A DNA stretch of 64,000 bases from Mycobacterium barrassiae (GTDB lineage: Bacteria; Actinomycetota; Actinomycetes; Mycobacteriales; Mycobacteriaceae): assembly GCF_025822765.1 (NCBI RefSeq), contig NZ_JACKUK010000016.1:562486-626485 (forward strand), read 5' to 3'. Below are positions 23,104 to 24,737 of the stretch, piece after piece. The notes beneath the pieces were generated by a model. It ran no database searches, was not told the DNA's origin, and saw only the letters and a program-made list of their open reading frames with translations. A program made the position numbers and the translations under genes. Numbering within the stretch: the first letter of the stretch is position 1; each line of letters opens with the position of its first letter.

Positions 23104-23828
23104 CTCGTAGCCAGCAGCGCTCTCTGTCCTTCGGTGCAGAAGCCGCGGCGTACGAGCGCGGTAGACCGTCGTACCCACCGGAAGCAATCGACTGGCTGCT
23201 CCCTGCCGGCGCCCGCGATGTCCTCGATCTCGGGGCGGGAACCGGCAAGTTGACGACGCGGTTGGTCGAGCGCGGGCTGGATGTCGTCGCCGTCGATCCG
23301 ATTCCGGAAATGCTTGAGCTGCTAAGCAATTCGCTGCCCGACACCCCTGCGCTGCTGGGCACCGCCGAGGAGATTCCGCTGCCCGACGACAGTGTCGACG
23401 CGGTGCTGGTCGCGCAGGCCTGGCACTGGTTCGATACCGGACGCGCCGTCAAGGAGGTGGCGCGGGTGCTGCGGCCAGGCGGCCGGCTGGGCCTGGTGTG
23501 GAACGCGCGCGACGAGCGGATGGGCTGGGTCAAGGACCTTGGCAAGATCATCGGCCACGAGGACGCCCACTTCAACGAGAAGACCACGCTTCCGGACGTG
23601 TTCACCGACGTCGAACACCACCGTGTCGACTGGACGAGCTACCTCACGCCGCAGGCACTCATCGATCTGGTTGCCTCGCGCAGTTACTGCATCACCTCGC
23701 CGGAGAAGGTGCGCACCGTCACCCTCGACCGGGTCCGTGAGCTATTGGCGACCCACCCGGCGCTGGCCAACTCCAACGGTTTGGCACTGCCGTATGTCAC
23801 GGTGTGCACGCGCGCCACGCTGTCCTGA
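23100..23828 (+). CDS. Class I SAM-dependent methyltransferase (Rv3342-like)
   Basis: A 242-residue methyltransferase of the UbiE/type-11 group. The SAM-binding motif I is [20 protein letters not shown] near residues 40-60, followed by acidic VVAVDP and a [17 protein letters not shown] motif typical of type-11 enzymes. The substrate is unknown. The ATG at 23100 overlaps the metX stop (ATGA), tying this methyltransferase to methionine synthesis and the SAM riboswitch, the same order as Rv3340-Rv3342. Its stop codon overlaps the presumed erm promoter. Confidence 0.87.
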
Positions 23829-23864
23829 AATTCGGTTGAGCGCCGTCGCCACGTCTGGAATCGT
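23828..23864 (+). promoter_or_regulatory. Candidate WhiB7-dependent promoter of the erm transcript
   Basis: AAATT (23828-23832), 3 nt, TTGAGC (23836-23841) as -35, a 17-nt spacer and AATCGT (23859-23864) as a weak -10. An AT-rich block 3 bp upstream of the -35 is the arrangement known for WhiB7-activated promoters. A start 7-8 nt after the -10 would fall on the ATG of the leader ORF at 23872, giving a leaderless leader peptide. The weak -10 suggests dependence on an activator. Inference from pattern. Confidence 0.45.
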
Positions 23865-23871
23865 GGCCGCC

Positions 23872-23907
23872 ATGTTGACTTCTTCGATGAGGTTGCGCAC
23901 CGCCTAG
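23872..23907 (+). CDS. Short leader peptide MLTSSMRLRTA upstream of erm (macrolide attenuation leader candidate)
   Basis: An 11-codon ORF (ATG...TAG) reads MLTSSMRLRTA. It contains SMRLR, the segment in which macrolide-bound ribosomes stall in ErmDL-type (RLR-class) leader peptides. It lies 71 nt upstream of erm, in a transcribed leader with no other gene, and its stop codon is immediately followed by a perfect 9-bp hairpin. Together these match the architecture of inducible erm attenuators. It may be translated from a leaderless transcript. The match of motif and position is direct; stalling activity is inferred. Confidence 0.65.
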   Translation: MLTSSMRLRTA

Positions 23908-23943
23908 CGGCGGAATCGACTTCACGCTCGACACTTCCGCCGC
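23907..23943 (+). promoter_or_regulatory. Hairpin in the erm leader
   Basis: GCGGCGGAA (23907-23915) and TTCCGCCGC (23935-23943) form a perfect 9-bp stem with a 19-nt loop. The left arm begins on the last base of the leader-peptide stop codon. A ribosome stalled on the RLR codons would cover or destabilise this stem. The erm ribosome-binding site (GCGGAG at 23968-23973) lies 25 nt further on. Whether the stem acts by translational or transcriptional attenuation is not clear; there is no T-run. Confidence 0.6.
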
Positions 23944-23978
23944 CGCAGCGACTTATCCCCTGCTACCGCGGAGTTGTA

Positions 23979-24737
23979 GTGTCCTCCCCTCATCGCGGCC
24001 GGCACGAGGCCGGCCAGAACTTCCTGCGCGATCGCCGCGCCATCGCCGACATCGTCGAGATCGTCGCGGCCACCGACGGACCCATCGTCGAAGTGGGCGC
24101 GGGCGACGGCGCGCTGACGCTGCCCCTGCAGCGATTGAACCGTCCGCTGACCGCCGTCGAAGTGGACGGACGCCGAGCGGCTCGGCTCGCTCGCCGCACC
24201 ACCGCGCGCACCCGCATCGTGCACGCGGACTTCCTGCGTTACCACCTGCCCCGCTCACCGCACACCATCGTCGGGAACCTGCCGTTTCACCTGACGACGG
24301 CCATCCTCCGGCGGATCCTGCATGCGCCGGGCTGGACCGACGCGGTGCTACTGGTTCAGTGGGAGGTCGCGCGGCGACGGGCCGGCGTCGGCGGTGCGAC
24401 GATGATGACCGCGCAGTGGTGGCCGTGGTTCGAATTCGGTTTGGTGCGTAAGGTTTCCGCCTCCGCGTTCCAACCCCGCCCCAGCGTCGACGCCGGTCTG
24501 ATGACGATCCGGCGGCGCACCGAGCCGTTGGTCGATGCACGCGACCGTCGTCGATATCAGGCGCTGGTGCACGCGATGTTCACCGGTCGCGGGCGCGGCA
24601 TCGCCGAGATTGCGTCGCGACAGATGCCAGCCGCCGTGACTCGCCTGTGGCTGGTGGACAACGGCATCCCCGCCAAGGCCCTGCCCCGCGACCTGAGCGC
24701 GACGCAGTGGGCGGCACTGTTCGCGGTCGCGGACTAA
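23979..24737 (+). CDS. erm: 23S rRNA adenine-N6 methyltransferase (Erm, macrolide resistance)
   Basis: A 252-residue Erm protein that methylates 23S rRNA (A2058, E. coli numbering) and confers macrolide-lincosamide-streptogramin B resistance. It starts SSPHRGRHEAGQNFLRDRR, with the GQNFL motif of Erm/KsgA proteins. It then shows SAM motif I (VEVGAGDGALTLPLQRL), the NLPFHLTTAILRR motif IV and ASAFQPRPSVDAG. It resembles the intrinsic mycobacterial family Erm(38)/Erm(39)/Erm(40). The GTG at 23979 has GGAG 5 nt upstream. GC content is like its neighbours, so there is no sign of recent transfer. Its stop overlaps the convergent DUF3017 gene by 4 nt. Confidence 0.93.
   Translation: MSSPHRGRHEAGQNFLRDRRAIADIVEIVAATDGPIVEVGAGDGALTLPLQRLNRPLTAVEVDGRRAARLARRTTARTRIVHADFLRYHLPRSPHTIVGNLPFHLTTAILRRILHAPGWTDAVLLVQWEVARRRAGVGGATMMTAQWWPWFEFGLVRKVSASAFQPRPSVDAGLMTIRRRTEPLVDARDRRRYQALVHAMFTGRGRGIAEIASRQMPAAVTRLWLVDNGIPAKALPRDLSATQWAALFAVAD

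What the first reader, a model, noticed from the sequence alone, without database searches (positions are those of the whole stretch)
23872..23978. RLR-type macrolide-stalling leader peptide and hairpin ahead of a chromosomal erm gene
Seen: an 11-codon ORF, MLTSSMRLRTA, 71 nt before erm; a perfect 9-bp stem starting on the last base of its stop codon; then GGAG and the erm GTG. Known: in RLR-class leaders such as ErmDL (MTHSMRLR...) the ribosome with bound macrolide stalls at Arg-Leu-Arg, refolding the mRNA and inducing the methyltransferase. Inference: this erm is drug-inducible by attenuation in addition to WhiB7. I cannot tell whether this leader has been described for mycobacterial erm genes.
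Basis: partly seen in the sequence, partly recalled or inferred. Interest (0 to 1): 0.75.

Follow-up and report, generated by a model that had tools for sequence, protein, structure and literature searches.

The report
Leaderless drug-sensing switch before erm
A tiny peptide gene in front of a mycobacterial antibiotic-resistance gene looks like a drug sensor shared across actinobacteria, and it appears to begin at the very first base of the messenger RNA.

Summary
In detail: MLTSSMRLRTA* (23872-23907), a perfect 9-bp stem, GGAG, then an Erm(38)-like gene.

It is conserved. Of 84 distinct actinobacterial upstream regions, 76 have a short ORF ending in Arg/Lys-X-Arg/Lys. X is four codons before the stop in 21 of 21 erm(38)-type and 53 of 55 other leaders. 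The rule is R/K-X-R, not RLR: an Erm(38) proper has RPR, M. wolinskyi RIR.

New: the leader looks leaderless. In 68 of 71 regions an in-frame start lies 6-7 nt after TANNNT; the window is one of the three exceptions (AATCGT, 7 nt). SD-like words precede 2 of 76 leaders but 70 of 76 erm genes. The mycobacterial promoters resemble WhiB7 promoters, so one start point may serve transcriptional and translational drug sensing.

Folding of 21 orthologs predicts the erm SD easiest to open when a ribosome sits at R-X-R, but this is weak for the window and parameter-sensitive.

RLR-class leaders are known (ErmD; ErmX leader is annotated), so this is a new variant of a known kind. Arrest, induction and transcription start are untested, and the original mycobacterial erm papers could not be read.

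The parts
23828..23832 (+). AT-rich box (AAATT) just before the -35 element, as at WhiB7 promoters
   Evidence: Sequence; same place in the orthologs listed; motif description from PMC10727445 passages
23836..23841 (+). -35-like TTGAGC, 17 nt before the -10-like hexamer
   Evidence: Sequence; spacer 16-18 nt in the 21 orthologs (read from its gap column). The generic sigma-70 scan found no promoter here
23859..23864 (+). -10-like AATCGT, 7 nt before the leader ATG; departs from TANNNT at the first base
   Evidence: Sequence; TANNNT 6-7 nt before an in-frame leader start in 68 of 71 relatives, the window not among them
23872..23907 (+). Leader ORF MLTSSMRLRTA*, predicted to start at the transcription start
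23890..23898 (+). Arrest motif codons AGG TTG CGC (R7-L8-R9); X four codons before the stop
23907..23915 (+). 5' arm of stem A (GCGGCGGAA), begins on last base of the stop codon
23935..23943 (+). 3' arm of stem A (TTCCGCCGC); its UCCGC can also pair with the erm SD
23968..23973 (+). erm Shine-Dalgarno region GCGGAG
23979..24737 (+). erm gene, 252 aa, Erm(38)-like 23S rRNA methyltransferase, GTG start
   Evidence: broad Erm model 293 bits (cut-off 212); Erm(38) model 420 bits (cut-off 800)

Best explanation
A WhiB7-type promoter starts transcription at the A of the leader ATG, so a ribosome loads directly on a leaderless 11-codon uORF. With a macrolide or ketolide bound, the ribosome arrests with X in the P site and the second Arg in the A site, four codons before the stop. 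There it masks the leader codons but lets most of stem A form; stem A keeps the strand UCCGC away from the erm SD (GCGGAG), and erm is translated. Without drug the ribosome runs to the stop, covers the 5' arm of stem A and frees UCCGC to pair with the SD. In many orthologs the Arg codons also pair with the SD in free RNA. Seen in sequence: the ORF, the motif and its fixed distance to the stop and stem, the promoter spacing, the lack of an SD. Predicted by folding: the RNA switch. Inferred: the transcription start, arrest and induction.
For: 76 of 84 distinct upstream regions carry the uORF. X at codon -4 in 21 of 21 and 53 of 55, though leaders of the erm(38)-type set are 10-18 codons long; the first basic codon is CGC 14, AGG 4, CGG 2, AAG 1 and X varies, so the peptide is kept rather than the DNA. 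68 of 71 regions have an in-frame start 6-7 nt after TANNNT, which otherwise occurs 21 times in 29,716 nt. SD-like words: 2 of 76 leaders, 70 of 76 erm genes. The SD opening energy is lowest in the stalled state in 19 of 21 orthologs (means 10.7 free, 7.5 stalled, 11.9 at stop), beyond shuffled leaders (2.75 vs -0.62, sd 1.45). Telithromycin stalls ErmDL at Arg-Leu-Arg with Leu in the P site (PMC8298421 passages). A 5'-terminal ATG suffices for translation in mycobacteria (PMC4633059 abstract). erm(38) is in the WhiB7 regulon (PMC13393426 passages).
Against: No TSS, toeprint or expression data were seen. The window has AATCGT, not TANNNT. For the window the stalled and free energies barely differ (6.6 vs 6.9; 9 of 40 shuffles reach its value), and with 30 or 75 nt of erm the stalled state is not lower. 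Set-wide, the stalled state is lowest in 15 to 21 of 21 by ribosome edge and 14 to 20 of 21 by RNA length. Even in the stalled model the SD bases are 67-97% paired, only more weakly. Positions upstream of the arrest site open the SD as well. Stem A shows no covariation beyond shuffles. In ErmDL, RLR is dispensable for erythromycin stalling. A TTG -35 was found in 19 of 21 erm(38)-type but only 16 of 55 other regions.
Confidence: 0.72

Rival explanations
1. Induction is by WhiB7 alone; the uORF is a relic of an ancestral erm attenuator and no longer acts.
For: PMC4128351 (passages) calls erm(37) an exception to uORF control because WhiB7 drives it; erm(38) is in the WhiB7 regulon (PMC13393426 passages). 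M. deserti (L003) keeps promoter and leader start but lacks the stop, hairpin and SD. An erm(41)-like gene has no hairpin leader.
Against: A relic would not keep X at codon -4 in 21 of 21 leaders while codons, leader length and X change.
Confidence: 0.15
2. The leader controls transcription (attenuation by termination) or RNA stability rather than access to the erm SD.
For: The whiB7 uORF works through a terminator (PMC4128351 and PMC10727445 passages). Macrolide stalling can also act on mRNA stability (PMC5118997, abstract start in a listing).
Against: No terminator-like site at 23780-24000; the folding model gives SD control. Rho-dependent termination and decay cannot be excluded.
Confidence: 0.1
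3. Short basic ORF and GC-rich stem are chance features of GC-rich DNA.
For: Similar stop-plus-hairpin words occur elsewhere in the genus (63 of 396 genomes, many places not at erm).
Confidence: 0.02

Closest known systems
ErmD leader (ErmDL), RLR class
   Same: Short uORF with Arg-Leu-Arg ahead of an erm gene; drug-dependent arrest there is established (PMC8298421 passages).
   Different: Here X varies (L, I, P), X is four codons before the stop and the stop overlaps the stem; the leader has no SD and probably no 5' UTR. Arrest not tested here. Whether ErmDL has an SD is from my own knowledge (it is a Bacillus gene), not from a call.
ErmX and Erm(36) leaders (actinobacterial plasmids)
   Same: ErmX leader MLISGTAFLRLRSNR is annotated as 'erythromycin resistance leader peptide'; erm(36) has MGSPSIAVTRFRRF. 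Both starts lie 7 nt after a TANNNT hexamer, so they share the geometry.
   Different: Not chromosomal mycobacterial genes; in ErmX the motif is one codon further from the stop. I found no statement that they are leaderless. That the Erm(36) leader was described before is recalled, not from a call.
Leaderless polycysteine attenuators of mycobacteria
   Same: Leaderless short ORFs controlling downstream genes (Canestrari et al. 2020, seen only as cited in PMC9031893 passages).
   Different: They sense cysteine supply, not a ribosome-bound drug.
whiB7 uORF attenuator
   Same: Antibiotic-responsive uORF in the same resistance network.
   Different: SD-led, with a rho-independent terminator (PMC4128351 passages).

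Membership tests
RLR (+X+) class erm leader attenuator | Short uORF with Arg/Lys-X-Arg/Lys directly upstream of an erm gene | tested here: met
RLR (+X+) class erm leader attenuator | RNA structure between leader and erm that can hide the SD and change with ribosome position | tested here: inconclusive
   19 of 21 orthologs at edge 16, weak for the window and parameter-dependent; no covariation support for stem A
RLR (+X+) class erm leader attenuator | Drug-dependent ribosome arrest at the motif and induction of erm | not testable with these tools
   needs toeprinting and reporters
Leaderless uORF | Start codon at the transcription start; -10 hexamer about 7 nt upstream and no SD | tested here: inconclusive
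   Sequence geometry fits in 68 of 71 regions; window has AATCGT at 7 nt; SD-like in 2 of 76. No TSS data seen
WhiB7-dependent promoter | AT-rich box 3 nt before a -35 element (PMC10727445 passages) | tested here: met
   Window AAATT-CGG-TTGAGC and orthologs; by sequence only. A [GA]TTG -35 was scored in 19 of 21 erm(38)-type, 16 of 55 other regions
Erm(38) proper | NCBIfam NF012218 score at or above 800 bits (386-position profile) | tested here: not met
   Window protein 420 bits; L012 meets it with 850 bits
Erm methyltransferase | NCBIfam broad Erm model NF000499 above its cut-off of 212 bits | tested here: met
   293 bits

The most novel reading that the evidence does not exclude
Across Actinobacteria, erm genes are controlled by leaderless arrest peptides: the transcript begins with the sensor's start codon, a ribosome loads at the 5' end, meets the drug test at a fixed distance from a stem that overlaps the stop, and so decides erm translation, while WhiB7/WblC sets the amount of RNA from the same start point. 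One minimal promoter-leader unit would join a transcriptional and a translational drug sensor, in mycobacterial chromosomes as well as on plasmids.
Probability: 0.55. Interest if true: 0.72.

Novelty: new variant of a known kind. Interest (0 to 1): 0.6.

Why it matters
Mycobacterial erm genes are discussed as WhiB7-controlled, and erm(37) is described as an exception to uORF control (PMC4128351 passages). [quoted passage not shown] Leaderless arrest leaders would also make it possible to ask how drug-bound ribosomes initiate at a 5'-terminal ATG, and the natural set (RLR, RIR, RPR, KLR) offers ready variants to compare.

Tried and rejected
Rfam: only a sub-threshold SAH riboswitch match on the opposite strand (16.8 bits, gathering 37); rejected. 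Terminator: none found. Covariation: stem A nearly invariant and not beyond shuffles. Pairing of leader codons with the SD: covariation score reached by 5 of 500 shuffles, but one slid control scores as high (0.056 vs 0.054), so I do not lean on it. Other WhiB7-type promoters in the genome: 3 places, none with ATG or GTG 4-11 nt after the -10 hexamer; the strict pattern did not match the erm promoter itself, so this says little. Erm(41) profile: 1 of 396 genomes at E <= 1e-40; its ATG 28 nt before the GTG overlaps erm out of frame, without hairpin. Four ~35% matches fetched: L096-L098 exceed the ksgA cut-off; L099 was not scanned and was set aside as the same kind. Synteny with the upstream methyltransferase was not tested: that query was translated in a wrong frame; only folD was tested.

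Counting notes. Before the counts I dropped L001 (duplicate of the window), L096-L099 and L103 (pattern duplicate); 97 loci collapse to 84 distinct regions. The 8 regions without a +X+ uORF: L003 (region with stop and hairpin missing), L054 and L069 (leader present, first basic residue absent), L065 (disrupted), L070 (106 nt available), L087 (match covers part of the gene), L095 (40% identity, no leader seen), L102 (broken gene). One search printed wrong long frames for L002 and L100 and preferred starts near a -10 box; the count to trust is that, which listed every in-frame start (exceptions L002, L059, L100). Five of the 76 (L077, L080, L082, L083, L085) are outside the 71 because they lack GGCGG after the stop. 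Two of 55 leaders miss codon -4: L074, and L100, which was scored on its wrong long frame. The 21-ortholog set includes L101, whose erm is broken, and leaves out L003. The binomial figure ignores relatedness and is not used. Six plasmid erm loci (L104-L109) are not in the 84: erm(36), ermX and erm(55) have the motif near the leader's end; erm(46), erm(50) and erm(51) do not.

Literature. Ten searches answered. In them and in the passages read I saw no leader described for mycobacterial erm(38)-(40) and no leaderless erm leader. But names with brackets such as erm(38) cannot be searched, no supplementary file was read, and two original mycobacterial erm papers tried are not held. Novelty is provisional.

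Full report
Check of the observation. The sequence at 23872-23981 is as described: an 11-codon ORF with Arg7-Leu8-Arg9, a stop whose last base begins a perfect 9-bp stem, GGAG, and a GTG 71 nt after the stop. The protein is an Erm methyltransferase (broad model 293 bits, cut-off 212), nearest to the Erm(38) profile but below its cut-off and without that protein's C-terminal part. The hairpin alone has z -5.4. The ORF-stop-CGGCGG pattern occurs once in the 5.9-Mb genome.

Relatives. Searches of 396 genus genomes (up to 30 loci were kept), of named genomes (57 loci) and of 119 genomes around one relative, with seven stretches taken out by hand, gave 84 distinct upstream regions. Of these, 76 have a short ORF ending in +X+ and at most four more residues. 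M. wolinskyi reads MSAATFFIRIRIA; M. houstonense, M. septicum and M. setense MSVTYIRLRIT; M. porcinum MSVTYLRLRTT; M. senegalense MSVTYLRLRTQ; M. frederiksbergense MLVDAAFFIRPRIA; M. hubeiense MLVSGMRLRTA. PMC11878018 (passages) gives erm(40) to M. wolinskyi and erm(39) to the M. fortuitum complex; which of the named species belong to that complex is my own knowledge. Three loci at 47-49% Erm identity still end in RLRTA (L092-L094).

What is conserved. In the 21 erm(38)-type leaders X is four codons before the stop in every one, although they are 10 to 18 codons long; the first basic codon is CGC (14), AGG (4), CGG (2) or AAG (1), X is TTG (16), CCC (3), ATT (1) or ATC (1), and the last Arg codon is CGC in all 21. 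Among the other 55 leaders X is there in 53. The pattern points to selection on the peptide and on the distance from arrest site to stop. The stop runs straight into CGGCGG in 56 of 76 regions and close variants fill most of the rest.

The leader looks leaderless. Listing every in-frame start of 71 uORFs defined by stop, GGCGG-like word and +X+, 68 have a start 6 or 7 nt after TANNNT (14 and 54 starts). The exceptions are the window (AATCGT at 7 nt), L059 (TAGCCT at 10 nt) and L100. TANNNT otherwise occurs 21 times in 29,716 nt of these regions. An SD-like word precedes 2 of 76 uORFs but 70 of 76 erm genes, in a crude window. In the erm(38)-type set a TTGA-like -35 with an AT-rich box stands 16-18 nt before the -10, the WhiB7 arrangement given in PMC10727445 (passages). 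Outside that set a [GA]TTG -35 was scored in only 16 of 55 regions, though an AT-rich stretch is often visible. [quoted passage not shown] The same geometry stands before the annotated ErmX leader and before erm(36). I saw no transcription-start data, so this is an inference.

How it may work. I folded the 21 orthologs from the ATG to 45 nt inside erm and computed the energy needed to open SD and start codon with a leader ribosome at each codon. With the front edge 16 nt from the P-site base the means are 10.7 (free), 7.5 (X in P site) and 11.9 kcal/mol (last sense codon in P site); the stalled state is below both others in 19 of 21. At edges of 15-16 nt the SD begins to close once the P site passes codon -4, so the arrest codon is about the last open position; codons further upstream are open too. 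Shuffled leaders do not show the effect. With the ribosome at the stop, the SD bases pair with the 3' arm of stem A (probability 0.55-0.95). In free RNA of the seven MSVTYIRLRIT leaders they pair mainly with leader codons in five.

Results against this model. For the window the stalled and free values hardly differ (6.6 and 6.9; 9 of 40 shuffles reach its difference), and with 30 or 75 nt of erm the stalled state is not lower. The set-wide count runs from 15 to 21 of 21 with the assumed edge and from 14 to 20 of 21 with RNA length. Even when stalled the SD bases remain 67-97% paired, more weakly. Covariation gives no support for stem A and little for the other pairing.

Natural exceptions. M. 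deserti keeps promoter and leader start but lacks stop, hairpin and SD. Two Streptomyces leaders (L054, L069) and one plasmid erm(46) leader (L107) lack the first basic residue, and erm(50) and erm(51) have RLR in mid-peptide only (read). An erm(41)-like gene has an overlapping ATG ORF and no hairpin. folD lies beside erm in 17 of 19 loci L003-L021 and 0 of 10 loci L022-L031; of the latter, L022, L026 and L027 score best with Erm(46)/Erm(55) models.

Known or new. RLR-class leaders, WhiB7 control of erm(38) and leaderless attenuators in mycobacteria are each known. ErmDL passages warn that erythromycin stalling there does not need RLR while telithromycin stalling does (PMC8298421), so the kept +X+ may point to ketolide-like inducers. 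A survey of erm genes found annotated uORFs in 14 of 35 known erm genes and small ORFs in 21 further homologs, and no universal pattern; its main text names mycobacteria only in the reference list (PMC11264731, section 15 and passages; its supplement was not read). The combination described here, a leaderless +X+ leader at a fixed distance from stop and stem under a WhiB7-type promoter, did not surface in my ten searches, which do not cover the original mycobacterial erm papers.

Noticed in passing
L003/L033 (M. deserti), upstream of erm: Promoter and leader start are kept, but the stretch with leader stop, hairpin and SD is missing; the leader ATG lies 31 nt before the erm GTG in another frame.
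   Followed up: partly
L110, about 1473-1503: An erm(41)-like gene has an ATG 28 nt before its GTG, 6 nt after TACGTT; the short frame overlaps erm out of frame and contains Arg-Val-Arg.
   Followed up: partly
L107, upstream of 483: A plasmid erm(46) leader reads MGNTNIAVTEFRRF: the first basic residue of the motif is Glu, so its response may differ.
   Followed up: no
L106 and L109, upstream of 486: erm(50) and erm(51) leaders have RLR in mid-peptide and a longer tail, with an ATG that again follows a TANNNT hexamer by 7 nt (read by eye).
   Followed up: no
L101 and L102: Two genus members hold broken erm copies; L101 still has an intact-looking leader (MSGATFFIRIRIS).
   Followed up: partly
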